Source of the DNA: Xanthobacteraceae bacterium
GTDB lineage: Bacteria > Pseudomonadota > Alphaproteobacteria > Rhizobiales > Xanthobacteraceae
Assembly (NCBI GenBank): GCA_019746355.1
Contig: JAIESC010000068.1
Span: forward strand, 115,122 to 179,121
DNA: 64,000 nt
Reading direction: 5' to 3'
This document shows positions 17,467 through 34,046 of this stretch, one piece after another. A model generated the notes under the pieces. That model had not been told where the DNA came from, did not search any database, and worked only from the letters and a program-made list of their open reading frames with translations. Position numbers and translations under genes: made by a program. How positions within the stretch are numbered: position 1 is the first letter of the stretch; each line of letters opens with the position of its first letter.

Positions 17467-18723
17467 TCAGCGCATCACGCCCAGGCGGCGCAGCGCGTCC
17501 GCGGGCTGCTGCAGGCCTGGGTCCAGCGCCGCCGCCCGGCGAAGGTCGGCGATGGCCGCGTCCTTGGCGCCAAGCTTTTCCTGGATCAGCCCGCGCAGGC
17601 TCAGCGCCTGCGCCCAGTTGGGGTTGATCTCGGCGGCCTTGGTTGCATCGTTGAGCGCCTCGCGGAAGCGGCCGGCGATGTAGTGCGCTTGCCCGCGTTC
17701 GTAGTAGGCCGGAGCGAAACCCGGCGAAAGCGCGATGGCTTTGTCGTAGTCGGCGATCGCGCGGTCGAGCGCGCCGCGGTTGCGCCAGATGTTGCCGCGG
17801 GTGCCGTAGAAGGCGGGGTTGCGCGTGTCGAGCGCGATCGCCTTGTCGAGGTCGGCGAGCGCCCGGTCCGGATCGCCGCGGGCGCCGAGCGCGATGCCGC
17901 GGTTGCCGTAGGCCGACGCGTTCTCGGGGGCAAGCCGGATCGCGGCGTCGAAATCGGCAATTGCGCGGTCGGGATCTTTCTTGGCGCTGAAGGCAAGCCC
18001 GCGGTTGAGATAGGCCAGCGCATAGTTCGGATCGAGCTTCAGCGCCGCGTCGTAGTCGGCGATGGCACGGTCCTGCTCGCCCTTGTCGGCAAGTGCGATG
18101 CCGCGGTTGTTGAAGGCCGCGGCCTCCCTCGGGCTGAGCCGGATGGCCTGGTCGTAATCGGCGATGGCGCGGTCGCTCTGGCCGATGCGGCGGAGCGCCA
18201 GCCCGCGGTTGAAGTAGGCCGCGCCGAGATTGGGATCGAGCCGCAGCGCCTGATCGTAGTCGGCAATGGCCCGATCGGTGTCGCCCTTGGCATCGTGCGC
18301 CGTGGCGCGGCCCATGAAGCTCACAGCGCCGCGCGGATCGAGCCGGATCGCCTGATCGAAGCTGGCGATGGCGCGGTCATAGTCGCGCCGCACCAGGTGC
18401 GCGTTGCCGCGGCTCAGATAGGCGCGGGCATAGCCGGGGTTGATGCGCACCGCGGTATCGAACTCGGTGACGGCCCGGTCGTAATCGCCGGCGCGGGCAT
18501 AGGCGATGCCGCGGTTGGAATGGACGATGGCGAGGTTGTCGCCGACATAGCGGCCGCTGTTCAGCAGCGTGGTGCAGGCGGTGGCCTGAACCTCCGCGCT
18601 TGCGCCGCCCATGCCGGCGCAGCGCCGCTCGTCCGCCGACAGTGGCTGCGCACGGCTTGAGGCGGCCGTGAGTGCCAACACTGCTGCGGTCAGCACAAGA
18701 AGGGCGAGGCGCGAGGTCGGCAT
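17467..18723 (-). CDS. Exported tetratricopeptide-repeat protein (10 repeats)
   Basis: A 418-residue protein with a signal peptide (MPTSRLALLVLTAAVLALTA, cleavage near SSRAQ) and ten consecutive 34-residue TPR units from about residue 62 to the C-terminus. The repeats are unusually uniform (DRAIADYDQAIRLDP appears with little change several times). A short pre-repeat region with two cysteines (RRCAGMGG, ATACTTLL) recurs in the downstream paralogue and may form a disulfide. It is a paralogue of the gene at 16390-17337. The function is unknown beyond a probable periplasmic scaffold. Confidence 0.9.
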   Translation of the reverse strand: MPTSRLALLVLTAAVLALTAASSRAQPLSADERRCAGMGGASAEVQATACTTLLNSGRYVGDNLAIVHSNRGIAYARAGDYDRAVTEFDTAVRINPGYARAYLSRGNAHLVRRDYDRAIASFDQAIRLDPRGAVSFMGRATAHDAKGDTDRAIADYDQALRLDPNLGAAYFNRGLALRRIGQSDRAIADYDQAIRLSPREAAAFNNRGIALADKGEQDRAIADYDAALKLDPNYALAYLNRGLAFSAKKDPDRAIADFDAAIRLAPENASAYGNRGIALGARGDPDRALADLDKAIALDTRNPAFYGTRGNIWRNRGALDRAIADYDKAIALSPGFAPAYYERGQAHYIAGRFREALNDATKAAEINPNWAQALSLRGLIQEKLGAKDAAIADLRRAAALDPGLQQPADALRRLGVMR

Positions 18724-18827
18724 GGCCTTCGTTCGGGAATCGGTGCGAGCGTTCTGTGACGGCTCTGGCGCAAATTTAAGATCGTCGCGTGACGTACGCC
18801 AGCTTTTGCTCGCCGACGCAGGTAACA

Positions 18828-20246
18828 TCAGCCGCCGCGCGGGTCGGAGGCACGGCCCGTGGCCGGCAGCCGGTTGGCCATTTCCGCCCCTGCATCCTTC
18901 GGCAGGAAGGCGAAAACCAGCGCCGAGCTTGCGGCGACCAGCCCCACGAGAATGAAGCCCGGCGGGAAGTCGGCGGCCGTGATGGCCGCGCGTTCGCTGA
19001 GGCGCGATGTCACCTCCACCGTCAGCGCCGCGCCGGCCACGCCGGTCGCAAGCGACACCTGCTGGGCGACGGCGGCGAACGCGGTGGCCCGGCTCATGCG
19101 CGCGGCGGGCACTTCGGCATAGGCGAGCGCATTGACCGCGGTGAACTGCAGGGACCGGAAAAAGCCGCCGATCATCAGGATCGTCACCATGACTGCGAAC
19201 GACGTGGTGGCGGAAAACCCGGCGCAGGCGACGATGAACAGTCCGCCGAGGATGGCATTGGCGACCAGCACGGTGCGGAAGCCGAACCGCTTGAGCACCC
19301 AGGGTGCGGCCGCCTTGACGATCAGCGCGCCCATGGTCGAGGTGAAGGTGATCAGGCCGGACTGAAACGGCGTGAGGTTGAAGCCGACCTGAAGAAGAAG
19401 CGGGAGGAGAAACGGCATCGCGCCGACGCCGATGCGGAACAGGAAGCCGCCGGTGACGCTCGCGCGGAACGTCGGCAGCTTCAGCAGGCCGAAATCGATC
19501 ACCGGCGCGGGCGCCCGCCGCGCATAAGGAATATAGAGTCCCAGCGCGATCAGGCCGGTCCCGATCATCGCCACGACAATGGGCCAGGGCACGATCTCGA
19601 AGCCCGCGACCGAGAAGCCAAACGTCAGGCCCGCGACGGCGACGCCCGCCAGCACCATGCCCACCGCATCGAACCGTTCCGGCACCTCGGCACGGACATC
19701 CTCGATGTAGCGCAGGACCAGGACGATGCCGATCAGCCCCATCGGCACGTTGATCAGGAAGATCCAGTGCCACGACGCATAGGTGGTGATGAAGCCGCCG
19801 ATCGGCGGGCCCAGCAGCGGCCCGATCATGGCGGGGATCGACACCCAGGCCATGGCGTTGACCAACTCCCGCCGGTCGATGGTGCGCACCAGCACCAGCC
19901 TGCCGACCGGGGTCATCATCGCTCCGCCGATACCCTGGACGATCCGGGCGAGCACGAAGTGCCAGAGCTGGGTCGACAGTGCGCAGCCGATCGAGCCGAT
20001 AATGAACACGGCGATCGCGGCGGCGAACACCGTCCGCGCGCCGAACCGGTCGGCGGTCCAGCCGCTCATCGGGATGAAGACCGCAAGCGAGAGCAGGTAG
20101 GAGGTCACCGCAAGCTTCAACGTCAGCGGGCTCGTGCCGATATCGGCGGCAATCGCCGGCAGCGAGGTGGCGATCACCGTCGAGTCCATGTTGTCCATGA
20201 ACAGCGACACCGCGACGATCATCGGGACGAGGCGTTTGCTGGTCAT
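18828..20246 (-). CDS. DHA2-family MFS multidrug exporter
   Basis: A 472-residue transporter with about 14 hydrophobic segments, of the EmrB/QacA drug:H+ antiporter-2 family. Visible motifs are LFMDNMDSTVIATSLPAIA in segment 1 (a variant of the family D-x-T-[VI]-[VI]-N-x-A-L-P motif D1), GWTADRFGARTVF (motif A) and GPLLGPPIGGFI (motif C). No adaptor (EmrA) gene is adjacent, so it probably acts alone in the inner membrane. Substrates cannot be predicted. Confidence 0.92.
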   Translation of the reverse strand: MTSKRLVPMIVAVSLFMDNMDSTVIATSLPAIAADIGTSPLTLKLAVTSYLLSLAVFIPMSGWTADRFGARTVFAAAIAVFIIGSIGCALSTQLWHFVLARIVQGIGGAMMTPVGRLVLVRTIDRRELVNAMAWVSIPAMIGPLLGPPIGGFITTYASWHWIFLINVPMGLIGIVLVLRYIEDVRAEVPERFDAVGMVLAGVAVAGLTFGFSVAGFEIVPWPIVVAMIGTGLIALGLYIPYARRAPAPVIDFGLLKLPTFRASVTGGFLFRIGVGAMPFLLPLLLQVGFNLTPFQSGLITFTSTMGALIVKAAAPWVLKRFGFRTVLVANAILGGLFIVACAGFSATTSFAVMVTILMIGGFFRSLQFTAVNALAYAEVPAARMSRATAFAAVAQQVSLATGVAGAALTVEVTSRLSERAAITAADFPPGFILVGLVAASSALVFAFLPKDAGAEMANRLPATGRASDPRGG

Positions 20247-20335
20247 GGACTCGTCATCAATGGTCCGGGCGCCTCCCTGGCGCCACTATAGGGGCGGCCG
20301 GTGGATGAAATTGAGATTTCCACGGAATTTCCTAG

Positions 20336-21979
<1,644 letters not shown>

Positions 21980-21981
21980 AC

Positions 21982-23007
21982 GTGAGCGTCGGCAAGCGCA
22001 TCCTGCTGGCGTCGCGCCCGGTTGGCGAGCCTCAGGAGAGCGACCTTCGCATCGAGGACATGCCGGTGCCGACGCCGGGGCCCGGCGAGATGCTGCTGCG
22101 GACGCTGTGGCTGTCGCTCGATCCGTATATGCGCGGCCGCATGAGCGACGCGCCCTCTTACGCGACGCCGGTCGCAATCGGCCAGGTCATGGAAGGCCGC
22201 ACCGTCAGCGAAGTCGTTGCGTCTCATCTCGAAGGCTACGCGCCCGGCGACATCGTGCTGAGCCCCAGCGGCTGGCAAACCCATGCGCTGAGCCAGGGCG
22301 GGCTCACGCGCAAGATCGATCGGTCGATCGCGCCGGTTTCGACCGCGCTCGGCGTGCTCGGCATGCCGGGCATGACGGCCTACGTGGGGCTGCTCGACAT
22401 CGGCCAGCCGAAGACCGGCGAGACCGTCGTGGTGTCGGCGGCGTCCGGTGCGGTGGGCTCGGCGGTCGGCCAGATCGCGAAGATCAAAGGCGCGCGTGCC
22501 GTGGGCATCGCCGGCGGTCCGGCCAAATGCCGCTACGTGGTCGACGAGCTCGGTTTCGACGCCTGCATCGACCACCACGCGCCCGACATGGCCGAGCGGC
22601 TCAAGGCTGCATGTCCGAACGGCATCGACGTCTATTTCGAGAATGTCGGTGGCGCGGTGTTCGAAGCGGTGTTTCCGCTCCTCAACAATTTCGCCCGCGT
22701 GCCGGTCTGCGGGCAGATCGCGACCTACAACGCCAGCGAGATGCCGGCGGGCACGTTGCGGACCTCGCAAGTGACGCGCGCGATCCTCACCAAGCGGCTC
22801 ACCTTGCGCGGCTTCATCGTGACCGACTTCGCCGCGCGCCAGGGCGATTTCCTGCGCGATGTCTCCGCCTGGGTGCGCGAGGGCCGCATCAAGTATCGCG
22901 AGGATATCGTCGACGGGCTCGAGAAGGCACCGCGCGCGCTGATCGGCCTGCTGCGCGGCGAGAACTTCGGCAAGATGCTGGTGCGTGTCGCAGCGCCGGA
23001 GCGCTGA
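21982..23007 (+). CDS. NADP-dependent oxidoreductase, CurA/leukotriene B4 dehydrogenase-like
   Basis: A 341-residue medium-chain reductase without zinc ligands. The cofactor site is SAASGAVGSAVGQIAK. The N-terminal LSLDPYMRGRM and the FENVGGAVFEAV motif are typical of the PTGR/CurA (YncB) group that reduces the double bond of alpha,beta-unsaturated carbonyls with NADPH. Translation starts at a GTG at 21982, 2 bases after the guaB stop, so it is probably co-transcribed with guaB. Confidence 0.93.
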   Translation: MSVGKRILLASRPVGEPQESDLRIEDMPVPTPGPGEMLLRTLWLSLDPYMRGRMSDAPSYATPVAIGQVMEGRTVSEVVASHLEGYAPGDIVLSPSGWQTHALSQGGLTRKIDRSIAPVSTALGVLGMPGMTAYVGLLDIGQPKTGETVVVSAASGAVGSAVGQIAKIKGARAVGIAGGPAKCRYVVDELGFDACIDHHAPDMAERLKAACPNGIDVYFENVGGAVFEAVFPLLNNFARVPVCGQIATYNASEMPAGTLRTSQVTRAILTKRLTLRGFIVTDFAARQGDFLRDVSAWVREGRIKYREDIVDGLEKAPRALIGLLRGENFGKMLVRVAAPER

Positions 23008-23018
23008 CGGTGCGCCAA

Positions 23019-23385
23019 CATCGCAGATATTTCTTCACCCCGGTAACGCACGTCGTAGTCGCCGGGCGGAAGCGGCGCCTCCTCCATTCGCGGCAGTAGA
23101 AGGAAACGGATCGGCTGCCAGTCGCCAAAGCCCTGATCGAGTGTGGCCTTTTGACGGATCGGCATCGTCCGGTAGCCCTCGGCCATGTTGCTGAGCCGCA
23201 GCGACATGCGGGCATCGCCTCCGTCCCGGCTGACACGGAAATCGCCGGCCACGACGGGCCCGCAGGGCTCGGTGAAAACGCGGTGGACATAACAAAAGTG
23301 CCTGCTCGAATTGTTTCGAGCCGAAGACGCCGTCCATGGCCCACCAAGTTTCCGAAAATGTTTGCAAAGCGCGACGCCAATCCAC
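23019..23385 (-). pseudogene. Degenerate copy C of the membrane-protein paralogue
   Basis: Read on the minus strand, this segment resembles the C-terminal two thirds of the intact protein at 26809-27531: MPIRQKATLDQGFGDWQPI matches MPIRADARLDDTFGPWQRI and LPPGDYDVRYRG matches LPPGEYEVRFR. Near the C-terminus an extra G (CCGGGGTGAAG against CCGGGTGAAG in the intact copy) shifts the VKKYL ending out of frame, and the usual stop is lost. Upstream, the CYV region appears only in a different frame from the preceding segment, suggesting a second shift. It is the most diverged of three copies and abuts the 3' end of the CurA-like gene. Confidence 0.65.
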
Positions 23386-23397
23386 CAGCGTCGCAAA

Positions 23398-23660
23398 TCA
23401 GAAATACTTCTTCACCCGGAAGCGCACTTCATATTCGCCGGGCGGCAGCGGCGGCATGTTCTCCCGTGGATTGGGCACTAACTCGATGCGCTGCCAGGGC
23501 CCGAACGTGTCGTCGAGCCTGGCGTCGGCCCGGATCGGCATCTTCCAGTGGCCTTCCTGTCTGCGGTCGAGGCCGAGCGACATCGTCTGGCTGTCGGCCT
23601 TGCTCGCGACTAGGAAACTCCCGGCGATCACCGGGTGGTCGCCGTCACGCCGCCACCCTC
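23398..23660 (-). pseudogene. 5'-truncated copy A of the membrane-protein paralogue
   Basis: The last 80 or so codons of a gene homologous to 26809-27531, ending in its own stop at 23398 (PPGEYEVRFRVKKYF then stop). Homology fades upstream near 23660 (RRDGDHPVIAG against RRENDRPVITG), exactly where the methyltransferase gene ends. The membrane-spanning N-terminus and start codon are missing. The first 144 bases (23404-23547) are about 96% identical to 26815-26958, with most differences silent. The rest is far less similar. Confidence 0.8.
23404..23547. repeat. Direct repeat, left copy (partner 26815-26958)
   Basis: 144 bases with 6 mismatches to 26815-26958, offset 3411 bases, in the same orientation, flanking the restriction-modification genes. 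Beyond 23547 similarity falls sharply although the same protein family continues to about 23660. This pattern suggests recent gene conversion or a partly homogenised long target duplication. Confidence 0.85.
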
Positions 23661-24865
23661 TGTCTTGCTCGGTTCCCCAGCCCCTCGCCAGGATGCGCGG
23701 CGTGATCGCCGACCAGCGAGTGGTAGGCCGACGGCACGTCGGCGACACGCTCGGGTGGTGGCACCACCTCACGTCGTGGTGGCAAGAGGTGCAGTTCTTT
23801 CTTTTTGATCGGCACCCCCAAGAGTTGCTGCCGAATCTCCCGGGCGATGATCTCTGCGACGAGCGATGGAACCGCATTGCCGAGCATGCGCTGTACGTCG
23901 TGGCGACTGCAGTCGAACTGCAGACCGTTGGGGAAGGTCTGAAGACGGCACAGTTCCTGAGGTGAAAGACGCCGACTAGTCCAGTGGAAAGGCCCGGTCG
24001 CGGGGCCTGGTTGCGCCTGGATGGTCCACGATGGGCGGTTCTTGGCGAGCTTCAGCAGAAAGCTCCAGTAGCGTGTGCGCCAGCCGAACAGCGGCATGCC
24101 GGCACCTCGCGCCGTGTGCCAGAGATAGTTCTCGCCCTCGGGAATGCTCGGTAGTAGGTCCGCCCACTTCCCACCCATCTTGAGTGAGGAATCGTTCAGC
24201 CGGTCCGGCAGGTCGCCGAGTGCGTCCCAGGTCGTGCGGTAGGGCTCAAGGTCTGCACCCAGAGTGATGTCATCGAGCTTGCCGTGCGTCGGCTTGGGGA
24301 GCTTGAATTGCTTGCCGTCGCGGCTTGCAACGATGAAGACACGCTCGCGGTGCTGTGGCACGCCATAGCTCGCCGCGTCGATTACCTGCCAAACGGGCCG
24401 GTACTTTGAGCCTGTTTTGCGGTTGATCTGGTCGACACCTGCGAGGATACGGTTGAGCCCTTCGCTCTTGCCCCTGTAGGCAAGCCCGTAGACGTTCTCA
24501 AGCACAAACGCCTTCGGCTGCACGTCGCGAAGGACGCGCAGGTAGGCTGTCAGCGTGTCAGAACGGGGATCGTCGAGTCGCATGGCATCGCCGCGCGCCC
24601 AATAGCCCGATTTGGAGAATGGCTGACATGGAGGACCACCAATGAGCACGTCGGCCTCGCCTTTCTTCAGGTTGGCCACCCGCAAAAGATCCTTAGACTT
24701 AACGTCGTGGAGGTCACGCTCTATCACCGGCCAGCGGCGGTTGAGGCGCAGAGTGCGGCAACAGACGGCATCCATCTCGACAGCAACCGAGGTCTCGAAC
24801 CCAGCAGCCTCGAAGCCGAAGTCCAGGCCGCCTACACCTGTGAACAGGCTGATTGCCTTAAGCAT
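23645..24865 (-). CDS. DNA (cytosine-5)-methyltransferase
   Basis: A 406-residue m5C methyltransferase. Conserved motifs are in standard order: I (SLFTGVGGLDFGFEAAGF, 6-23), IV with the catalytic C80 (GGPPCQPFSKSG), VI (LENVYGL, 122-128), VIII (QHRERVF, 171-177) and X (MLGNAVPSLVAEI, 327-339). The region at about 225-300 should be the target-recognition domain. I start at 24865 (MLKAISLF); an upstream extension would precede the promoter. After motif X there is an atypical basic/proline-rich tail of about 55 residues whose last codons overlap the truncated paralogue copy. It protects host DNA against the divergent endonuclease. The recognition sequence is unknown. Confidence 0.94.
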   Translation of the reverse strand: MLKAISLFTGVGGLDFGFEAAGFETSVAVEMDAVCCRTLRLNRRWPVIERDLHDVKSKDLLRVANLKKGEADVLIGGPPCQPFSKSGYWARGDAMRLDDPRSDTLTAYLRVLRDVQPKAFVLENVYGLAYRGKSEGLNRILAGVDQINRKTGSKYRPVWQVIDAASYGVPQHRERVFIVASRDGKQFKLPKPTHGKLDDITLGADLEPYRTTWDALGDLPDRLNDSSLKMGGKWADLLPSIPEGENYLWHTARGAGMPLFGWRTRYWSFLLKLAKNRPSWTIQAQPGPATGPFHWTSRRLSPQELCRLQTFPNGLQFDCSRHDVQRMLGNAVPSLVAEIIAREIRQQLLGVPIKKKELHLLPPRREVVPPPERVADVPSAYHSLVGDHAAHPGEGLGNRARQRVAA

Positions 24866-24899
24866 TTCTTGATGACCCCACACAGCCGTCGTGAGAACA

Positions 24900-24928
24900 A
24901 ATATAGAACGCCCCGCTTCGCGCGTCAA
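24900..24928 (-). promoter_or_regulatory. Strong sigma70-type promoter for the methyltransferase
   Basis: On the minus strand TTGACG (24928-24923) and TATATT (24905-24900) are separated by exactly 17 bases. The expected start point is about 28 bases before the methyltransferase ATG at 24865. No similarly good promoter is visible for the divergent endonuclease gene. Confidence 0.7.
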
Positions 24929-25067
24929 CGGAGGCGCCAAGATGGGTGCGCAGGCCCGAATCGCTGCGCGTCATGATAATCGTACATGCGGGCAGACTCG
25001 CCGGCGACATGGATGCCCAACGTGTCCATAGCGTGCTGGTCCAGCCCATTCCCGGAGAGTTGTAGGT

Positions 25068-26279
25068 ATGAGCAGTGACGATGTATCCGTCGGCGAGGAG
25101 ACGTCATTCTCGTGGAAGGTCTATTCCGTCAGCGCTCGCGACAAGGCGCCACTGATTCAGTTCATCCGCGAAGGCCTTGAGGCGCGCGGCTGCACAATCC
25201 ATCACATAAGCCCCGCCAATCGAGCGCCGTTCCACATCGTTCTTGACATGCCGGGCGGCGAGCGACTCAGTGTCCTTGTCTACGCTTTCCTTGCCAACTC
25301 CAAGCCGACCACGCACCGGCCCACCGATGAGCACCGGTTCCAGATCAAGTACGGTGGCGATCTCTCTGGCGTCATCGACGTCGCCGTCGATCCACGCGGC
25401 GTCACGACGACGATCTTCGTAGGCATCGATGTTGAGCGGAACTTGTTCGTGGCCGCCGATCCGCTGATGAACAGCCCGTCGCCAATGTCGCGCTCGGTAG
25501 AGTTCAAGACTGAGAAGGTCGAGCGGATTCTCACCAAAGGCTGGTGCGCATGGGAACGCGACCGGCGCGAGGCCAAGACAACGACGCGTCGGGCTTTCGA
25601 GTTGCTGCCAGACATCCGCACCGAGATACTCATCGGCGGACGGCAGGATAGGTTGCTGGATCTGATCTTGCTTGAGCGCGTCGCCGGCGGGCTCGATCCC
25701 GGCGAGCGACATCTCATAGCCGATAAGTTCCGCGAGTTGCCTGGCAAGCGCGCAGCAAGCAAGATATCGCACAAGCTGCTTGACGAGCTGAGCATCGCGC
25801 CCGAGGCGCTGCTCGATCTCATCAATTCCGCCAGCCGACTGAAAATGGCCGTGCGCGGCTGGGTAGCCGAGGCGCATCTCGAGGCATACCTCAAGAGTGT
25901 CGAGGGGGTTACCGAGTGCGTCCGCCTGCAGGGCGACGGCAAGCCCGACATCAGCTTGCGCTGGAAGCACGGCAAACCGATCCTCGTCGAATGCAAGAAT
26001 GTCCTACGTACGACATATGCGGGCGGCGTTCCAAAGCTCGATTTCCAGCGAACCCGCGCCTCCAAGTCAGATCCGTGCTCGCGTTACTACACACCGAGCG
26101 ATTTCCAATTGGTCGCCGCGTGCTTGCACCCCGTGACGGAGCAGTGGGAGTTCAAGTTCGCGCTGACCAGAGAGCTGCCGACACACGGGAGTTGTCCGGG
26201 GCGGATAGACAACAATATTCGAGTTGGGGGTAGCAGCTTCTCATCACAAATCGATGCCGTGCTTGACAGGCTGGCTTGA
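25068..26279 (+). CDS. Probable type II restriction endonuclease (PD-(D/E)XK)
   Basis: A 403-residue protein I do not recognise by name, but with a nuclease signature: PD at 293-294 and E-C-K at 308-310 in GKPDISLRWKHGKPILVECK, the spacing of the PD-(D/E)XK fold, with a possible helical acidic residue in GWVAEAHLEAYL (265-276) before it. The N-terminal 150 residues contain HRPTDEHRFQIKYGG and look like a separate domain, possibly for DNA recognition. An RBS GGAGAG precedes the start. Its place between an m5C methyltransferase and a vsr gene makes it the restriction partner. No catalytic data can be inferred beyond this. Confidence 0.8.
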   Translation: MSSDDVSVGEETSFSWKVYSVSARDKAPLIQFIREGLEARGCTIHHISPANRAPFHIVLDMPGGERLSVLVYAFLANSKPTTHRPTDEHRFQIKYGGDLSGVIDVAVDPRGVTTTIFVGIDVERNLFVAADPLMNSPSPMSRSVEFKTEKVERILTKGWCAWERDRREAKTTTRRAFELLPDIRTEILIGGRQDRLLDLILLERVAGGLDPGERHLIADKFRELPGKRAASKISHKLLDELSIAPEALLDLINSASRLKMAVRGWVAEAHLEAYLKSVEGVTECVRLQGDGKPDISLRWKHGKPILVECKNVLRTTYAGGVPKLDFQRTRASKSDPCSRYYTPSDFQLVAACLHPVTEQWEFKFALTRELPTHGSCPGRIDNNIRVGGSSFSSQIDAVLDRLA

Positions 26280-26303
26280 TTATCGTCGGAAACGAGATCA
26301 GAT

Positions 26304-26732
26304 TTAGTTTAGTTTGCTGACCGCTTTTCGCGATCGAAGAAACCTCGCCAGCGTCTTGCTCAGCTTTCGGTTGTCCATAGTCTCGCACTCCCATACGACG
26401 AGCACGCCCCAGCCCAATTCGTGAAGCAGCGCAACACTCGCTTCGTCGCGCCGACGATTGCGTTCGAGCTTTGGCCCCCAGTATTCTGGCTTCGATCTCG
26501 GCAGCTTGCGGCCATCTGCGCAGTCATGACGATGCCAGAAGCAGCCGTGAACAAGGATCACCTTGCGATGGCGAGCCAGCACCATGTCGGGGCTGCCGGG
26601 TAGCCTCGATTGATGCAGCCGATATCGGTATCCCATGCTATGGACGAGGCTCCGGACGATCATCTCCGGCCTAGTGTTGGTCTTGCGGATGCGCCGCATC
26701 CGCTCAGTCAAGCTGAGTCTTTCGTGCTTCAC
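26304..26732 (-). CDS. vsr: Very short patch repair (Vsr) mismatch endonuclease
   Basis: A 142-residue endonuclease that nicks 5' of the T in T:G mismatches arising from deamination of 5-methylcytosine. Family features are present: TRPEMIVRSLVHSMGYRYRLH at the N-terminus, the catalytic aspartate in LPGSPDMVLARH, and the histidine and zinc site in VHGCFWHRHDC. It ends 25 bases from the convergent endonuclease gene, so it is transcribed separately from it. Its presence supports the idea that the neighbouring methyltransferase makes m5C in vivo. In E. coli the partner is Dcm; here it goes with a complete R-M set. Confidence 0.95.
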   Translation of the reverse strand: MKHERLSLTERMRRIRKTNTRPEMIVRSLVHSMGYRYRLHQSRLPGSPDMVLARHRKVILVHGCFWHRHDCADGRKLPRSKPEYWGPKLERNRRRDEASVALLHELGWGVLVVWECETMDNRKLSKTLARFLRSRKAVSKLN

Positions 26733-26808
26733 GCGAAGATTCCCTTACCGCGCCTCAGCGCCATACTATGCTGTTCCACCGCTGCAACGGCTTTGATGCT
26801 GGCGTTCG

Positions 26809-27531
26809 CTAGAGATACTTCTTCACCCGGAAGCGCACCTCGTATTCGCCGGGCGGCAGCGGCGGCATGTTCTCGCGTGGGTTGGGGACGAACTCGATGC
26901 GCTGCCAGGGCCCGAACGTGTCGTCGAGCCTGGCGTCGGCCCGGATCGGCATCTTCCAATGGCTCTCCGCTTCGCGGTTCAGGCGAAGCGCCAGGGCTTG
27001 ACTGTCGCTCTTGCTGGTGACCAGGCAGCTTCCGGTAATCACCGGCCGGTCGTTCTCGCGACGCAGGTCGGACACGTAGCAGCCTTTGCCGGATTTCTCC
27101 GCCCACAGCACCACGTCGACCTTGTCGCGGCGCGGCTGCGGCGTGCCGGGTGGCAGACGGATTTCGTATTGCACGCTCGGGGTCCCTGAGCTTTTCGGCC
27201 AGTCGAAGGTGACAAGCATCAGGCCGCCGACGAGGACCGCGGCCGCTGCCACACCGATGAGCGAAAGCCGCCGCGCCTCCATGCTGCTCCGCATGCAGAC
27301 GAGCGCCAGGAAGACGCCGAGCAGCAGGCCGACGAGCCCGCCGCCGAACGTGCTCCAGATCAGCATGTCCTTGAGCTCGGCGATGTCGCGGTCGGTCCAC
27401 GCCGCGATCGCATAGGCCAGCGCCTCGCCGCCGAACAGGCCGAGCCAGCCGCCGATGAGCGCTCCCGCGACGCCCACGAGATGGCGGGTCGGGGCGCTGA
27501 ACGGCGGGGGCGGAGTCGGACGCGAGGCCAT
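26809..27531 (-). CDS. Membrane-anchored protein, intact copy B of a three-copy set
   Basis: A 240-residue protein of unknown function. The N-terminal half has three hydrophobic segments (about 17-42, 57-82 and 90-108). The C-terminal 130 residues form a soluble domain with the motifs MPIRADARLDDTFGPWQRI and LPPGEYEVRFRVKKYL. The C-terminal domain recurs, truncated, at 23398-23660 and, degenerate, at 23019-23385. This is the only full-length copy, and marks the right side of the restriction-modification island. The soluble domain looks like a beta-sandwich carried on the membrane, but I assign no function. Confidence 0.75.
   Translation of the reverse strand: MASRPTPPPPFSAPTRHLVGVAGALIGGWLGLFGGEALAYAIAAWTDRDIAELKDMLIWSTFGGGLVGLLLGVFLALVCMRSSMEARRLSLIGVAAAAVLVGGLMLVTFDWPKSSGTPSVQYEIRLPPGTPQPRRDKVDVVLWAEKSGKGCYVSDLRRENDRPVITGSCLVTSKSDSQALALRLNREAESHWKMPIRADARLDDTFGPWQRIEFVPNPRENMPPLPPGEYEVRFRVKKYL
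26815..26958. repeat. Direct repeat, right copy (partner 23404-23547)
   Basis: Right copy of the 144-base near-identical repeat, inside the 3' end of the intact gene. Recombination between the two copies would delete the methyltransferase, endonuclease and vsr genes as a 3.4-kb circle and leave one intact paralogue. Confidence 0.85.
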
Positions 27532-27626
27532 TTTCCGGAACTGGGACGAGGCGGGCTCGTTTTGAAGCCTACACTATCGCTCGCGCCCTTGAGCCGCTAG
27601 TAAACCGGGCGAAACGGAGCTTCGGC

Positions 27627-28052
27627 ATGTCCATCCCTGCGATTCTCGCGCCCCTGTTTGTCCAGGTGCTGCTCACCTTTGCGCTGATGCTCGGCATGAT
27701 GGTTTTGCGCGGCACCGCCTTGATCCGGGGCAAGACGCGCACGGAAAGCATCGCCATGCGCGAGCTGAACTGGCCGTATCGGGCGACGCTGTTTGCCAAT
27801 TGCTTTAGCAACCAGTTCGAGTTGCCGGTCCTGTTCTACGTTCTGACCACTCTGGCCATGGTCACGAAGCACGCGGACCTCCTCTTCGTGCTGCTGGCCT
27901 GGGTGTTCGTCGCGATGCGGTTGCTGCAGGCGCTGGTGCATGTAACCAGCAACGACGTGCGCTTCCGTGGCGGCTTCTATGGCGTCGGCGCGATCGTGCT
28001 GCTGGTGATGTGGCTGATCTTCATCGTCAAGATCATGCTCGGCGTGCCGTGA
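27627..28052 (+). CDS. MAPEG-family membrane protein
   Basis: A 141-residue four-helix integral membrane protein. The family signature region RELNWPYRATLFANCFSNQF, the LPVLFYVLT helix and the FVAMRLLQALVHVTSNDVRFR stretch match the MAPEG (glutathione/eicosanoid metabolism) superfamily. Bacterial members are of unclear function. It lies 13 bases upstream of the RsmB-like gene on the same strand. Confidence 0.85.
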   Translation: MSIPAILAPLFVQVLLTFALMLGMMVLRGTALIRGKTRTESIAMRELNWPYRATLFANCFSNQFELPVLFYVLTTLAMVTKHADLLFVLLAWVFVAMRLLQALVHVTSNDVRFRGGFYGVGAIVLLVMWLIFIVKIMLGVP

Positions 28053-28065
28053 TGAGGGGCTCCGC

Positions 28066-29367
28066 ATGACACCCGGCGCACGCCTGGCCGCGGCCATCGA
28101 AGTTCTCGCCGACATCGGCGCGCGGCGCAGGCCCGCACCCGACGCGCTGAAAGACTGGGGCCTGTCGCACCGCTTTGCAGGCTCGGGCGACCGCGCCGCG
28201 ATCGCCGGCCTCGTCTATGACGCGCTGCGCCGCAAGGCCTCTTCGGCCTTCGTAATGGGCGACGACAGCCCGCGCAGCACAGCGCTGGGCATGCTCGTTC
28301 GCGAACGCGGCCTTGATGCCGACGCGGTGGCACGGCTGGCCGACGGCGGCCGCTATGCGCCGCCGCAACTGACCGGCGCCGAGCGCGCGAAGCTCGGCGC
28401 GCCGGACGTCTCCGGCGCGCCGCCCCATGTGCGCGGCGACTATCCGGAATGGCTCGATCCTTATCTCGCAAAGGTATTCGGCGAGGAGCGGGCCGAGGAG
28501 GGCGCGGCACTCGCCTCGCGCGCGCCGCTCGACCTGCGCGTCAACGCGCTCAAGGGTGCGCGTGACGAAGCGTTGGCAGAGCTCTCGGATCTCAAGCCCG
28601 AGCCGGCGCGCTGGTCGCCGCACGGAATTCGCATCAAGCTCGCCGCCGATGCGAAGAATCCCGCGGTGCATGCCGAGCGTGCCTACCTCAAGGGCCTCGT
28701 CGAAATCCAGGACGAGGGCTCGCAGCTTGCCGCGCTGCTCGCGGCCGCAAATCCCGGCGAGCAGGTGCTCGACCTTTGCGCCGGCGGCGGCGGCAAGACG
28801 CTCGCGCTGGCCGCGGCGATGCAAAACAAAGGGCAGATTTACGCCACCGACGACGACAAGCGCCGTCTTGCGCCGATCCATGGGCGGCTGGAACGCGCCG
28901 GCGCGCGCAACGTTCAGGTCCGCACGCCGAAGTCCGTGGGCAATGAGCTGGACGATCTTGCCGGCAGGCTTGACCTCGTGCTGATCGACGCGCCGTGCAC
29001 CGGCATCGGCGCGTGGCGGCGCAATCCCGATGCCAAATGGCGGGTGCGCCCGGGCGCGCTCGAGGTCCGCAATAGGGAGCAGGTGGCGGTGCTCGACCGC
29101 GCCGCGGCGCTGGTCAAGCCCGGCGGCCGCATCGCCTACATCACCTGCTCGGTGCTCGACGAGGAGAATGGCGCGCAGGTGCGCGCCTTTGCCGGACGGC
29201 ATCCGGGCTTTTCCATCCAGCCGCCGGCCGAGGTGACGAACGCTCTGGGCGAGCGCGCCTATCTGTTCCGCCGCGCGGTGCTGATATCGGACGAGGGCCT
29301 GCTGATGACGCCGCGGCGCACCGACACCGACGGTTTCTTCGTCAGCATCCTGCGCCGCGCAGCCTGA
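28066..29367 (+). CDS. RsmB/NOP-family RNA (cytosine-5)-methyltransferase
   Basis: A 433-residue SAM-dependent enzyme of the NOL1/NOP2/Sun family. The two characteristic cysteines are in DAPCTGIGAWRRNPDAKWR (motif IV) and YITCSVLDEENG (motif VI). The SAM site is LDLCAGGGGKTLALAA. The N-terminal 150 residues resemble the NusB-like RNA-binding part of RsmB, though no strict assignment to m5C967 of 16S rRNA can be made. It sits between guaB and guaA, as in related Bradyrhizobiaceae. Confidence 0.93.
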   Translation: MTPGARLAAAIEVLADIGARRRPAPDALKDWGLSHRFAGSGDRAAIAGLVYDALRRKASSAFVMGDDSPRSTALGMLVRERGLDADAVARLADGGRYAPPQLTGAERAKLGAPDVSGAPPHVRGDYPEWLDPYLAKVFGEERAEEGAALASRAPLDLRVNALKGARDEALAELSDLKPEPARWSPHGIRIKLAADAKNPAVHAERAYLKGLVEIQDEGSQLAALLAAANPGEQVLDLCAGGGGKTLALAAAMQNKGQIYATDDDKRRLAPIHGRLERAGARNVQVRTPKSVGNELDDLAGRLDLVLIDAPCTGIGAWRRNPDAKWRVRPGALEVRNREQVAVLDRAAALVKPGGRIAYITCSVLDEENGAQVRAFAGRHPGFSIQPPAEVTNALGERAYLFRRAVLISDEGLLMTPRRTDTDGFFVSILRRAA

Positions 29368-29415
29368 CCGCGCGGGGCGGGAACAAACGAGATGGCTTGA
29401 TGCTTATGATTGGCC

Positions 29416-29670
29416 ATGAATACTCGATTTCTCGCCCAGCTCAGGTTAGCGGGGTTTCCGCAACGCAGTCCCGACACAGTTCCGACTTGCGCCGACCTCA
29501 TTGAGGGCTGCGGCGAGGCGCTGCAAAGGGTCGAGTGGAATCGTCCTGCAACCGAATGGACAGCCTACTCCCGCGACGGCTCGGCTTACGCCGGTCAGAC
29601 CCCTGAAGATGCACTGGCCAACCTGTGGCTCGCCACGCATCGGCAATTCGACCGCGAGATCATCCTGTAA
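29416..29670 (+). CDS. Small hypothetical protein
   Basis: An 84-residue soluble protein starting MNTRFLAQLRLAGFPQRSPD. The acidic middle (CADLIEGCGEALQRVEW) and the C-terminus (TPEDALANLWLATHRQFDREI) recall the small phage- and plasmid-type proteins that predict substrate binding sites, but I recognise no family. Start at the ATG 29416; an in-frame TTG lies two codons upstream. Confidence 0.55.
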   Translation: MNTRFLAQLRLAGFPQRSPDTVPTCADLIEGCGEALQRVEWNRPATEWTAYSRDGSAYAGQTPEDALANLWLATHRQFDREIIL

Positions 29671-29836
29671 AAGCCGTGACGCAGCGTCATTCGGTCGTCG
29701 CGAAGGACCTGCCTTCATCGGGCTCGCGTCGGTCAAGCCGTGGTTGCACGTCAATCAGTCCGCGTCCTAGTCTGTTTCGAAAGGCTGGCAACTGCGCATT
29801 TGCCTGCCATCAAAACACGCGCAGGGAGGTGACGCG

Positions 29837-30856
29837 ATGGCTGCTGGGCCAAAGCGACATAGGCCGGGACGACGCGAGGCGGCATGCAACACATTCCGTC
29901 TCATAGCGGCATGTCTGAGCGTGCTTGCCGCTCTCGCGTTGCCGCGAGACGCGCACGCGCAGGGCTATCCCGAACGCACCATCAGCTACGTCGTGCCAAG
30001 CGGCCCCGGCAGCTCGCCGGACATTGTCGGGCGCATCGTCGCGGAAGCGCTTGCCAAGATCCTCGGCCAGCCGGTGGTGGTGATGAACCGCGCCGGGGCA
30101 GGGGGGACGATCGCGGCCGCCGCCGCCGCGAGGGCCACGCCCGACGGCTATACGATCCTTCAGGCGAACGCCAACCTCTCGTTCAGCCAGACGCTTTACA
30201 AGAACCTCGCCTACGACATCGAGAAGGACTTCGTTCTGGTCGGGCGCTTGGCGTCGGGCTTCTACATCGTCGTGGCGCATCCCAAGGTCGGCGTCAAAAC
30301 CCTGAAGGAGCTGATCGAAAAGGCCAGGGCGCAGCCCGGCAAGCTCAACTATGCGTCGGGCGGCGTGGGGGCCGCGACCTTCATCGTCACCGAGGTGCTG
30401 AAGGCGCAGGCGCAGCTCGACATGGTCCACGTCCCCTACAACGGCGGCGGACCGGCGCTCGCCTCGATCCTCTCCGGCGTGACCGACATCTACGGATCGC
30501 CCTACACCACCGCCAAGCCGTTCGTCGACGAGGGCAAGCTTATCGGCCTCGCGGTCTCGTCGGCACAGCGCATCCCCTACATCCCGGACATGCCGACGGT
30601 CGCCGAGACGCTCCCCGGCTACGAGGTGACGACGTGGCATGGGCTGGTGCTTCCGGCCGGTACGCCCCCCGCCATCCGCGACAAGCTGCAGTCCGCGATC
30701 AGCTATGCCGTCAACCTGCCGGAGATGAAAAAGCGGTTTGAGGAGCTTGGCTATGTGGCGATCTCCGAGACGCCGCAGGAGTTTGCCAAATTCCTGCGCG
30801 AGGACGTCGAGAGCATGGCGAGCCTCATCCGGCAGTACAACCTGAGGCCGGAGTGA
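29837..30856 (+). CDS. Bug/TctC-family periplasmic binding protein
   Basis: A 339-residue extracytoplasmic solute receptor of the tripartite tricarboxylate family. A signal peptide ends near RDAHAQ (about residue 42). The mature start YPERTISYVVPSGPGSSPDIVGR and the GAGGTIAAAAAARATPDGYTIL motif are typical. The membrane components TctA and TctB are not adjacent, as is usual for orphan Bug proteins of this kind. The following PanE-like reductase, 31 bases downstream, may be in the same operon, hinting at a carboxylic acid ligand. Confidence 0.92.
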   Translation: MAAGPKRHRPGRREAACNTFRLIAACLSVLAALALPRDAHAQGYPERTISYVVPSGPGSSPDIVGRIVAEALAKILGQPVVVMNRAGAGGTIAAAAAARATPDGYTILQANANLSFSQTLYKNLAYDIEKDFVLVGRLASGFYIVVAHPKVGVKTLKELIEKARAQPGKLNYASGGVGAATFIVTEVLKAQAQLDMVHVPYNGGGPALASILSGVTDIYGSPYTTAKPFVDEGKLIGLAVSSAQRIPYIPDMPTVAETLPGYEVTTWHGLVLPAGTPPAIRDKLQSAISYAVNLPEMKKRFEELGYVAISETPQEFAKFLREDVESMASLIRQYNLRPE

Positions 30857-30887
30857 CGCGTCCGCGGCGTTCAATCCTGGAAATCTC

Positions 30888-31919
30888 ATGAGCCAGAAAA
30901 TCGCAGTCCTCGGCACCGGCGCGAACGGAAGCTGCGTCGCAGCCGACCTCGCCAACGCCGGCCTCGACGTCGTGGTGATCGACCAATGGCCCGCCCATGT
31001 CGAGGCGATGCGGGCCAACGGCGTGCACGTGACGCTGCGGCAGGGCGAGATCCGCGCCAAGGTGCGGGCCTATCACCTGTGCGAGCTCGCCTCGATGCGC
31101 CAGGTGTTCGACGTCGTGTTCCTGGTGACCAAGGCCTACGACACGCGCTGGCATGCCGAGCTGATCAAGCCCTATCTCGCGCCGGACGGATTTCTGGTCG
31201 GCCTGCAGAACGCGATGACGGCGGGCGTGATCGCCGACGTGGTCGGCCATGCCCGGACGCTCGGCTGCGTGCCCGAGCTGTCGTCCTATTGCTTCGTGCC
31301 GGGCGAGATCAAGCGCAACACCGCGCCCGACCGGACCTGGTTCGCGCTCGGCAGCTTTCATCCCTCCACCGCCGGCCGCGTCGAGGAGGTCGCCGCGATC
31401 CTCCGTCACGCCGGCAAGGTGGAAATCTCGTCGCACATTCTCGCGGCGAAATACATGAAGCTCGTGCTGAACTCGATGACGCTTGGCACCATCGCCATGA
31501 CCGGCGGCGAGCTGTCGGACAGGCAGCCCGAGGGCATGCAGGAGCTGATGATGCAGCTCGGCTCGGAGGCACTTCGGGTCGGTGAGGCGCTGGGCCACCC
31601 GGTCGTGCCGATCTTTGGGCTGACGCAGGCCGAGATCGAAGGCTCGAACAATCTGCTGATGAAGCTCGTCGACAAGGTCAACCACGACATCGGTCCGGGG
31701 CGTGGCGCCAACACCACCTTGCAGGACCACATGAAGGGAAGGCTGAGCGAGATCGACCTGATCAACGGCTACGTCGTCGAGGAGGGCCGCAAACGCGGTA
31801 TCCCGACACCGGCCAACGAAACGCTGATCGAGATGACGCGTCGCATCCACGCCGGCGAATTGAAGCCCGACCCGTCCAATCTCCCGATCGCGTTGCAACT
31901 GCTGCGATCGAAGACCTAA
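30888..31919 (+). CDS. Ketopantoate reductase-family (PanE/ApbA) dehydrogenase
   Basis: A 343-residue NAD(P)H-dependent reductase. The nucleotide site is IAVLGTGANGSCVAADLANAG (residues 4-24, GxGxxG). The C-terminal helical domain has the conserved GRGANTTLQDHMKGRLSEID pattern, with the family K-x-R-x-E-I-D-x-N region (seen here as RLSEIDLINGY). Rhizobiales have many paralogues of this family with 2-oxoacid substrates other than ketopantoate, so a vitamin B5 role should not be assumed. It follows a Bug binding protein. Confidence 0.9.
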   Translation: MSQKIAVLGTGANGSCVAADLANAGLDVVVIDQWPAHVEAMRANGVHVTLRQGEIRAKVRAYHLCELASMRQVFDVVFLVTKAYDTRWHAELIKPYLAPDGFLVGLQNAMTAGVIADVVGHARTLGCVPELSSYCFVPGEIKRNTAPDRTWFALGSFHPSTAGRVEEVAAILRHAGKVEISSHILAAKYMKLVLNSMTLGTIAMTGGELSDRQPEGMQELMMQLGSEALRVGEALGHPVVPIFGLTQAEIEGSNNLLMKLVDKVNHDIGPGRGANTTLQDHMKGRLSEIDLINGYVVEEGRKRGIPTPANETLIEMTRRIHAGELKPDPSNLPIALQLLRSKT

Positions 31920-31989
31920 GATAACGCGCCATCTCGTTGTCTGCCTTGCGGCTTCCGGTGTTGAAGTTTGGTGACGATGGAGAAAGCCC

Positions 31990-32259
31990 ATGCCGTGGCG
32001 AAAAGTGTTGCTCGCAATGTCTGCGGCGGCCGTCGTCGCCGTCACCTTCGCATCCACCGACGCAGAGGCCCGCCGGCGCGGGGCGCGCTCGATGAGCCCT
32101 GACTATTACGACCGCTACTATTGTGGGCGGCTGCCGGCCTACGGCTACGATGGTTGCGGTCGTCCGGAGTTCAGCTATGGCCCGGACTCCTGCTGGCTGC
32201 GCGTGATCGCAAATACGCGGGAGGGGCCGATCCCTCGTCCGGTGTACATCTGCGGCTGA
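31990..32259 (+). CDS. Small exported Tyr/Cys-rich protein
   Basis: An 89-residue protein with a signal peptide (MPWRKVLLAMSAAAVVAVTF, cleavage near TDAEA). The mature part has four cysteines (YYCGRLPAYGYDGCG, DSCWLRV, VYICG) and many tyrosines, compatible with a disulfide-bonded periplasmic or envelope protein. I recognise no named family, though similar short exported proteins are common in Bradyrhizobiaceae. Confidence 0.65.
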   Translation: MPWRKVLLAMSAAAVVAVTFASTDAEARRRGARSMSPDYYDRYYCGRLPAYGYDGCGRPEFSYGPDSCWLRVIANTREGPIPRPVYICG

Positions 32260-32322
32260 CTGGCGGTTTTGCCCGGCGCGCCTGCAAGCCTGTTGAGGCG
32301 CGCAGCGTAAGCGCGAATTTGC

Positions 32323-32338
32323 GAGGCCGTTCGGCCTC
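32323..32338. terminator. Hairpin between convergent genes
   Basis: GAGGCC (32323-32328), a four-base GTTC loop and GGCCTC (32333-32338) lie just before the stop of the minus-strand coiled-coil gene and downstream of the plus-strand exported protein. It probably serves as a shared weak terminator; there is no T-run. Confidence 0.4.
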
Positions 32339-32530
32339 TCAATCGCGCTTGGTGGTGCCGGCGGATCGCTGATCCCGTTCGAGGCGGCGGTTTTCCGCCC
32401 TCAAGCGCTGTGTTTCCTTTTCGAGCGCGTCAATCTGCTCGTCGAGCCGGGATATCCTCGTCTTGGGTGAATCGCTGCCGCGCAACTTTTCGAGCGCCTT
32501 GCCAACGTCGAGCTTGGTCGTTTCGGCCAT
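32339..32530 (-). CDS. Small coiled-coil protein
   Basis: A 63-residue, highly charged protein (MAETTKLDVGKALEKLRGSD...) whose second half has clear heptads (ISRLDEQIDALEKETQRLRA) typical of a short dimeric coiled coil. The start at 32530 has GAGGGA upstream. It is too short to assign a role; a regulatory or structural partner-binding function is possible. Confidence 0.6.
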   Translation of the reverse strand: MAETTKLDVGKALEKLRGSDSPKTRISRLDEQIDALEKETQRLRAENRRLERDQRSAGTTKRD

Positions 32531-32741
32531 GGGAAATCCCTCGTGATGATTTCCGGGCGCACATGATGCGCCCGGGCTGGGCTCTTTACCATTGGTCCAA
32601 GGTCCAACCTCGTTTGCCTCCCGCTTGCGCGGTGAGGGGCATCTGTCCGACACTCGCCGCCAAGGAAGGCCAGCCCGTTGCGACGCCGGGCCGTCCCCGG
32701 CGGTGAAACGGGCGAGGCGCTTTCGCATCAGGGAGGCGAGC

Positions 32742-34046
32742 ATGTCAGTTTCAACGTCGGTCCGGCGCGGATTGCTTGTGGCCGGAGGCTTCGCGTATCT
32801 CGCCGCGGCGGTGTTGCCGCTTGCGGCGCAGCAGCAGGCACCTGCTCCGTCCGGCGCAAATATACCGCCGATGTCCCAGGGCCGGCCGGGCTTCAGCCCG
32901 ATCGACCAGACCAAGGTCGAGCGGAGCAAGCAGGATTTCAACCTCAAGGGTCATCCGGTCCCACCGGTTGCCACGGCGGTCGACAAGCTCCCGGTCGACA
33001 AGATCAAGCTGCCGGCAGGCTTCAAGGCCGAAGTCTGGTCGAGCGGCCATCCGGGCGCGCGCACCATGGTGATGGGCGACAAGGGCACCATGTTCATGGG
33101 CTCGCGGATCATCGGGCGCGTCTATGCCATCACTGACAAGGGCGGCAAGCGCGAGCCCAAGGTTCTGATCCAGGGCCTGACGCAGCCGAACGGCCTCGCC
33201 TTCAAGGACGGCTCGCTCTACGTGTTCGCGATCAACAAGGTCTATCGCTACGACAAGATCGAGGACAATCTCGACAAGCTCCCTGAGCCGGTGGAGCTGA
33301 CCCAGGCCTATAATCTGCCCGACACCGTCCACCACAATTGGAAATACGTGGCGTTCGGTCCGGACGGAAAGATGTATGTGCAGGTCGGCGCGAACTGCAA
33401 CGTCTGCGAGATCAATCCCGGCACCCACGGCCAGATTCGCCGCTACAACGCCGACGGCAGCGGCATGGAGATCGTCGCGCGCGGTGTCCGCAACACGGTC
33501 GGGTTCGACTGGCATCCGGTAACCAAGGAATTATGGTTCACCGACAACGGCCGCGACTGGGCTGGCAACGAAGGACCGCAGGACGAGCTCAATCGCATCG
33601 CCAAGGGCAACGAAGGCGCGGACTTCGGCTTCCCGTACTGCCACGCCAACCGCATTGCCGATCCGGATGTCAGGAAGCCCAATCCGTGCGCGGGCGTGAC
33701 ATTGCCGGCGGCGCTGACCGGGCCGCATTCGGCAGGCCTCGGCATCAAGTTCTACACCGGCGACATGTTCCCGAAGTCCTACAGGAACGTCGCCTTCATC
33801 GCCCGCCACGGCTCGTGGAATCGCGAGAAGAAGTTCGGCTATGACGTGGCGATCGCCCGCATCTCCGGCGGCAAGGCGAAGATCGAGCCGTTCCTGACCG
33901 GGCTTCTCAACGAGGAGAAGAACGAGTTCTACGGCCGTCCGTCCTACGTCTTGCAGATGAAGGATGGCTCGCTGCTGGTGTCTGACGAGAACAATGGCGC
34001 GGTCTACCGCATCAGCTACGGCGATCCGAAAACCGCCGCGAGGTAG
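32742..34046 (+). CDS. Exported PQQ-dependent sugar (sorbosone) dehydrogenase-like beta-propeller
   Basis: A 434-residue periplasmic protein of the soluble glucose/sorbosone dehydrogenase family. A signal peptide (residues 1-29, ending LAAQQ) precedes a six-bladed propeller. Family marks are LTQPNGLAFKDGSLYVF, VRNTVGFDWHPVTKELWFTDNGRDW and FIARHGSWNREKKFGYDV. Members oxidise sugars or sugar-like alcohols using PQQ and pass electrons to a cytochrome. RBS GGGAGG at 32731-32736. An efficient terminator follows at 34076-34103. Confidence 0.88.
   Translation: MSVSTSVRRGLLVAGGFAYLAAAVLPLAAQQQAPAPSGANIPPMSQGRPGFSPIDQTKVERSKQDFNLKGHPVPPVATAVDKLPVDKIKLPAGFKAEVWSSGHPGARTMVMGDKGTMFMGSRIIGRVYAITDKGGKREPKVLIQGLTQPNGLAFKDGSLYVFAINKVYRYDKIEDNLDKLPEPVELTQAYNLPDTVHHNWKYVAFGPDGKMYVQVGANCNVCEINPGTHGQIRRYNADGSGMEIVARGVRNTVGFDWHPVTKELWFTDNGRDWAGNEGPQDELNRIAKGNEGADFGFPYCHANRIADPDVRKPNPCAGVTLPAALTGPHSAGLGIKFYTGDMFPKSYRNVAFIARHGSWNREKKFGYDVAIARISGGKAKIEPFLTGLLNEEKNEFYGRPSYVLQMKDGSLLVSDENNGAVYRISYGDPKTAAR

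What the first reader, a model, noticed from the sequence alone, without database searches (positions are those of the whole stretch)
23019..27531. Restriction-modification-vsr island inserted within a set of three paralogue copies
An m5C methyltransferase, a divergent PD-(D/E)XK endonuclease and a vsr gene are packed between copies of one membrane-protein gene: intact on the right (26809-27531), truncated at its 5' end on the left (23398-23660), and a third degenerate copy at 23019-23385. A repeat of 144 bases is 96% identical at both sides in the same orientation. Insertion of R-M genes accompanied by long target duplication has been described for R-M units in Helicobacter comparisons; this locus fits that picture or an alternative in which the module landed in a pre-existing tandem array and truncated one copy.
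Basis: partly seen in the sequence, partly recalled or inferred. Interest (0 to 1): 0.75.

Follow-up and report, generated by a model that had tools for sequence, protein, structure and literature searches.

The report
Restriction module inside decayed tandem genes
A bacterial DNA-restriction gene set landed in a row of older sibling genes and cut one of them short; the matching sequences on its two sides are best explained by the siblings copying from each other, not by a duplication made by the insertion.

Summary
A C5-cytosine methyltransferase, a PD-(D/E)XK-type endonuclease (MTaX1 family) and vsr lie between an intact paralogue (A, 26809-27531), a 5'-truncated one (B, 23398-~23653) and a degenerate fragment (C, ~23025-23315). 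A close relative (L001, about 92.5% identical on both flanks) has one A-type gene there and no R-M genes, which at first looks like insertion with target duplication. The sequences say otherwise. Only the last 144 bp of B match A closely (137/144). The next 110 bp match at 76/110, below A versus L001 (98/110), and belong to another clade of the family (A+B rejected, AU p=0.001), while the 144-bp part belongs with A (B with that other clade rejected, p=0.004). C belongs to a third clade, found beside the same oxidoreductase gene in another genome. So B and C look like older paralogues, B's 3' end was overwritten by A's (gene conversion), and the R-M module replaced the 5' part of B. Its left end is the natural stop of the methyltransferase. 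The interval varies among relatives. The module is sporadic, foreign in composition and of a known kind. Interest is modest.

The parts
21991..23007 (+). NADP-dependent-type oxidoreductase gene (OXR), conserved left neighbour
   Evidence: PF16884/PF00107; syntenic in L001, 95%
23025..23315 (-). Fragment C: 3' part of a third paralogue, degenerate (frameshift near its end, 5' part missing)
   Evidence: tblastn of family proteins, best P0233 at 60% over 85 aa; groups with P0233 and L012
23316..23397 (.). Stretch between B and C mostly without recognisable similarity (one listed row reaches 23336, the furthest row 23378)
   Evidence: no match in the loci held at that time, no Pfam family for a 45-aa translation, nothing in 11 genomes of the relative's genus, a search without a positive control
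23398..23653 (-). Fragment B: last ~85 codons of a second paralogue, truncated at its 5' end by the module
23400..23543 (-). Left copy of the 144-bp direct repeat (A-like 3' end of B, inferred gene-conversion tract)
   Evidence: 137/144 to 26811-26954; groups with A, support 99/89
23645..24940 (-). C5-cytosine DNA methyltransferase; its natural stop lies at the junction with B
   Evidence: PF00145, TIGR00675; homologue in L050 ends in the same residues RQRVAA-stop
25068..26279 (+). Restriction endonuclease (predicted): MTaX1 domain plus C-terminal PD-(D/E)XK motif
   Evidence: PF20296; D294, E308, K310 invariant in 51 sequences; model resembles I-Ssp6803I
26304..26732 (-). Vsr mismatch endonuclease
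   Evidence: PF03852, TIGR00632
26733..26808 (.). 76-bp spacer between vsr start and the stop of A; right end of the module lies here
   Evidence: similarity to the L050 module ends at 26731, the vsr start; no match in held loci
26811..26954 (-). Right copy of the 144-bp direct repeat (3' end of A)
26809..27531 (-). Paralogue A, intact, 240 aa
   Evidence: orthologue in L001, 91%
27627..28052 (+). MAPEG family gene, conserved right neighbour
   Evidence: PF01124; syntenic in L001
28066..29367 (+). rsmB/F-type rRNA methyltransferase gene, conserved right neighbour
   Evidence: PF01189; syntenic in L001

Best explanation
An old tandem array of related genes (order OXR - C - B - A - MAPEG - rsmB) was invaded by a horizontally acquired type II-like R-M-Vsr module. 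The module came in between A and B by an illegitimate event that removed everything from the end of A to about codon 156 of B. Separately, the last 144 bp of B had been, or later were, overwritten by the same stretch of A (gene conversion), which made the near-identical direct repeats that now flank the module. Shown: three different paralogue clades, the mosaic B, the foreign composition of the module, the module ending at the methyltransferase stop. Inferred: that A, B and C once stood intact side by side here, the order of conversion and insertion, gain of the module in this lineage and not loss in L001, and loss of B and C in L001.
For: B's first 36 aa are nearest to P0134 and P0136 (29/36 each) against 21/36 to A, and A+B is rejected there (AU p 0.001); B's last 48 aa match A at 46/48, and B with P0131-P0137 is rejected there (p 0.004). 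The break is abrupt at DNA level (7/144 against 34/110 differences) and not seen for A/L001. C groups with P0233 and L012, the OXR-adjacent copy of genome G009, in both segments (FastTree support 0.92 and 0.95). Two tandem copies stand at this very locus in G006; G002 has two side by side and a third about 20 kb away, but at another locus. P0124 and P0127 share their last 120 aa at 118/120 but their first part at 86/118, the same 3' homogenisation elsewhere. Module GC 60.6%, GC3 0.70-0.75; flanks GC 66-67%, neighbouring genes' GC3 0.84-0.89; B's GC3 0.845. No family member at E 0.001 flanks any of 7 other modules in the stretches fetched.
Against: The closest relative, L001, has a single copy and neither B nor C, so the array must have been lost there, or B and C gained in the window's lineage. 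G004 too has one copy. No genome with intact A- and B-type genes side by side was found. Within the 144 bp alone, A is not significantly nearer to B than to L001 (7 against 14 differences, p 0.17), so that the conversion is younger than the split from L001 rests on the tree. Segments are short (36 and 48 aa), the tested groups were chosen after the identity tables had been seen, and the B+P0131-P0137 branch has support 91/88, below the tool's star. That both B and C keep only their last ~85-95 codons is not explained. C's GC (62%) lies between module and flanks.
Confidence: 0.75

Rival explanations
1. The B fragment travelled with the R-M module. In a donor related to the P0131-P0137 clade the module sat next to a B-type gene; a circle or fragment carrying module plus B end recombined with A's 3' end by homology, leaving a copy of the 3' end on each side.
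For: By reasoning, a single crossover with such a circle gives the observed order A - vsr - endonuclease - MTase - B end. L001 and G004 have a single copy, so a single-copy ancestor is possible. The repeats hold identical runs of 64 and 32 bp, long enough for homologous recombination (recalled knowledge).
Against: The last 144 bp of B are A-type, not donor-clade type, so conversion is needed as well. It does not explain C. None of 7 other modules carries a paralogue end in the stretches fetched.
Confidence: 0.13
2. R-M insertion with long target duplication: the module duplicated 144-254 bp of A on insertion.
For: Direct repeats of the right size order flank a module that is absent from a syntenic relative. 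Some R-M systems are said to insert with target duplications of the order of 100 bp (PMC3874152, passage).
Against: 110 bp next to the module are of another clade; C lies between the left repeat and the conserved flank; the repeats differ at 7 of 144 sites.
Confidence: 0.06
3. The locus is an assembly artefact that joins two related genomes at the repeat.
For: The window's genome is not held and its source is unknown.
Against: Both flanks match L001 about equally (92.49% left, 92.60% right), and a join at a repeat would be expected to leave one copy, not two (reasoning).
Confidence: 0.05

Closest known systems
Insertion with long target duplication of R-M genes (Helicobacter pylori; Nobusato et al. 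2000, not read, known through passages of PMC1643837, PMC3031569 and PMC3874152)
   Same: R-M genes flanked by direct repeats of about 100 bp or more, absent from a syntenic relative
   Different: The left repeat is part of a chimera of two paralogue clades and is separated from the conserved flank by a third paralogue fragment; the repeats do not look like one duplication made on insertion
C5-MTase / MTaX1-PD-(D/E)XK endonuclease / Vsr modules in genomes of the relative's order (for example locus L050)
   Same: Same three genes in the same order and orientations in L050, at 80, 79 and 69% protein identity
   Different: Here it lies between paralogue copies; L050 has a second C5-MTase next to it
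Gene conversion between tandem paralogues (concerted evolution)
   Same: 3' end homogenised, 5' part divergent; same pattern in P0124/P0127
   Different: Here one partner was later, or earlier, truncated by the module

Membership tests
R-M insertion with long target duplication | R-M module absent from a relative with otherwise conserved flanks | tested here: met
   L001 lacks it, flanks about 92.5% identical. None of the three R-M proteins matched in the loci read from 9 of the 10 other genomes of its genus set (G008 not read; some loci partial)
R-M insertion with long target duplication | Direct repeats of about 100 bp or more directly at both ends of the insert | tested here: inconclusive
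   144-bp repeats exist, but the left one is separated from the methyltransferase by about 100 bp of another clade
R-M insertion with long target duplication | Empty site holds one copy of the repeat bounded by the same flanks | tested here: not met
   In the window C lies between the left repeat and OXR; L001 has no C there
R-M insertion with long target duplication | Both repeats descend from one target sequence | tested here: not met
   For the whole 254-bp match: B is a mosaic, A+B rejected in the 36-aa segment. The 144-bp part alone does share one origin with A
Type II-like R-M system | DNA methyltransferase with intact domain | tested here: met
   PF00145 over residues 28-370 of 431
Type II-like R-M system | Endonuclease with catalytic motif | tested here: met
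   D294...E308-C-K310 invariant in 51 aligned sequences; Foldseek match to I-Ssp6803I, E 6.4e-4, TM 0.52 by target and 0.21 by query; the motif name and the fold class of that enzyme are recalled
Type II-like R-M system | Both enzymes act on the same DNA site | not testable with these tools
   no sequence-based prediction of the site was made
Vsr family | Score above curated cut-off | tested here: met
   TIGR00632 131.3 bits against 97.85; PF03852 85.9 against 27
Gene conversion between tandem paralogues | Abrupt change of similarity and of tree position within one gene | tested here: met
Gene conversion between tandem paralogues | Both intact partners present in one genome | not tested
   the window's genome is not held and the contigs of the metagenomic proteins could not be opened

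The most novel reading that the evidence does not exclude
The R-M module moves by ordinary homologous recombination through host paralogue ends: it carries or captures a truncated piece of a host gene family as a homology arm, can excise as a circle between the 144-bp repeats and re-enter any genome that has a family member, with no integrase or transposase.
Probability: 0.08. Interest if true: 0.6.

Novelty: new member of a known kind. Interest (0 to 1): 0.28.

Why it matters
It is a worked case in which a flanking direct repeat plus an R-M-free relative with a single copy looks like insertion with long target duplication, yet segment-by-segment trees point to old paralogues and gene conversion. 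Surveys that score R-M mobility from flanking repeats could apply the same check. It also marks the interval between the oxidoreductase and MAPEG genes as a variable site in this bacterial group.

Tried and rejected
The window's own genome is not held, so other copies in it and read support could not be checked. A scan of viral contigs for the endonuclease confirmed none (5 stretches matched a pattern, none encoded a relative), and plasmids gave one record with a 30%-identity match over 36% of the query, so no vehicle was found. The 111-bp stretch between B and C found nothing in 11 genomes (without a positive control, so weak), and a 45-aa translation from it no Pfam family. The test of constraint on B since the conversion (6 changes on B's side: 4 silent, 2 not; 1 silent change on A's side) is too small to tell whether conversion came before truncation; its p value (0.049) rests on a silent fraction of 27% that I assumed. 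I considered that both truncated copies arose from repeated R-M insertions, but C has no module next to it and belongs to another clade. A paper search for at least five of the terms restriction-modification, gene conversion, tandem, paralog, insertion, vsr (10 of 13 papers listed, seen as a listing only) showed none that by title describes such a locus. Furuta et al. 2010 (PMC2853133) is not held, and Nobusato et al. 2000 was not looked up.
Full report
What is there. The window holds, on the conserved backbone guaB - oxidoreductase (OXR) - MAPEG - rsmB, an extra segment between OXR (21991-23007) and MAPEG (27627-28052). From left to right: fragment C (about 23025-23315, minus), an 82-bp stretch mostly without recognisable similarity, fragment B (23398-~23653, minus), a C5-cytosine methyltransferase (23645-24940, minus), an endonuclease (25068-26279, plus), vsr (26304-26732, minus), a 76-bp spacer and the intact paralogue A (26809-27531, minus).

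The R-M module. The methyltransferase matches PF00145 and TIGR00675; vsr matches PF03852 and TIGR00632 above their cut-offs; the endonuclease matches PF20296, MTaX1. One paper describes MTaX1 as potentially involved in discriminating modified DNA and found in several R-M systems (PMC10853773, one passage). In an alignment of 51 endonuclease sequences (window plus 50 of the 120 listed hits) D294, E308, C309 and K310 are invariant. A model (mean pLDDT 80.5, pTM 0.61) has one Foldseek match below 0.001, the homing endonuclease I-Ssp6803I (E 6.4e-4, 114 columns, TM 0.52 by target length, 0.21 by query length); that this enzyme is of the PD-(D/E)XK kind is recalled. The endonuclease family is large (1663 proteins at E 0.001 among the 7996 candidates scored) but sporadic: 5 of 391 genomes drawn from the relative's family and 3 of 397 drawn from its order, one of the three weak. 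In the 7 loci read (L050-L056) methyltransferase and endonuclease are together in all 7, vsr is there in 6 of 7, orientations vary, and L050 has the window's arrangement at 80, 79 and 69% identity. None of the 7 shows a family paralogue at E 0.001 in the stretch fetched. Composition marks the module as foreign: GC 60.6% against 66-67% in the flanks, GC3 0.70-0.75 against 0.84-0.89 in neighbouring genes; B's GC3 is 0.845, and C's GC, 62%, lies between.

The junctions. In L050 the methyltransferase ends in the same residues as here, followed by a stop, so the window's methyltransferase is complete, and its stop lies within the first codons of B that can still be aligned. The left junction is therefore fixed within roughly 15 bp, in sequence that serves both frames; that this reflects short shared sequence at the junction is inference. 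On the right, similarity to the L050 module ends at 26731, the vsr start, and 76 bp of unknown origin separate it from A.

The relative without R-M. L001 (Xanthobacteraceae MAG, JAIESI010000256.1) matches the left flank at 92.49% and the right flank at 92.60% (which compared 18000-34000). It has one intact A-type gene (91% protein identity) between OXR and MAPEG, no R-M genes, no B and no C. Taken alone this would fit insertion with target duplication.

Why that is not enough. A and B differ at 7 of 144 sites in the repeat and at 34 of 110 in the next stretch (Fisher p 2e-8), whereas A and L001 differ at 14/144 and 12/110 (p 0.84). In the 110 bp A is nearer to L001 than to B (p 0.0004); in the 144 bp the difference between A/B and A/L001 is not significant by count (p 0.17). 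In the 36-aa stretch before the repeat B is nearest to P0136 and P0134 (29/36 each), against 24/36 to L001 and 21/36 to A; in the last 48 aa it is nearest to A (46/48) (108-109 rows compared). In trees of 27 chosen rows B falls with P0131-P0137 in the first segment (91/88, not starred; A+B rejected, AU p 0.001) and with A in the second (99/89, starred; B with P0131-P0137 rejected, p 0.004). The segments are short and the groups were named after the identity tables were seen. C falls with P0233 and L012, the OXR-adjacent copy of G009, in both segments (FastTree support 0.92 and 0.95). Three clades cannot come from one recent duplication of A.

Mechanism and order. Most likely: an array C-B-A; conversion of B's last 144 bp by A, probably after the split from L001; arrival of the module with loss of the 5' part of B; loss of B and C in L001. 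Of the 7 A/B differences in the repeat, 6 are on B's side by comparison with L001 (4 silent, 2 not) and 1 silent on A's, too few to order conversion and truncation. The mosaic and the foreign composition rest on data; the array as such, the order, the illegitimate nature of the insertion and the loss in L001 are inferred. The repeats, with identical runs of 64 and 32 bp, could let the module be lost again by homologous recombination; no excision junction was looked for because no reads are held.

Known work. Insertion of R-M genes with long target duplication is described as a pattern from Helicobacter genome comparison (PMC1643837, passages; also mentioned in PMC3031569, passages), with duplications of the order of 100 bp (PMC3874152, passage). 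The primary paper was not read. This locus resembles that pattern but fails two defining features, so I do not file it there. It is a new example of known things: an R-M-Vsr module in a variable interval, and gene conversion between paralogues.

Noticed in passing
29757-31799: About 2 kb present in the window but absent from L001, holding a TctC-type solute receptor gene (29837-30856) and a PanE/ApbA-type gene (30888-31919); a second indel near the R-M site.
   Followed up: partly
L050 3722-4768 and 1966-3075: Next to the related module in L050 are a second C5-cytosine methyltransferase overlapping the first one's stop and a GmrSD_N-domain gene, possibly a small defence cluster.
   Followed up: partly
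L056 8720-11033: The endonuclease homologue matches in two pieces about 1.2 kb apart, as if interrupted.
   Followed up: no
L084 3400-7600: In G013 the interval between oxidoreductase and rsmB holds other genes (by eye a TPR-like protein; a second MAPEG-like match) and no family member.
   Followed up: partly
23316-23397: Stretch between B and C without recognisable relatives (55% GC over 23300-23400); B and C both keep only their last 85-95 codons, which is unexplained.
   Followed up: partly
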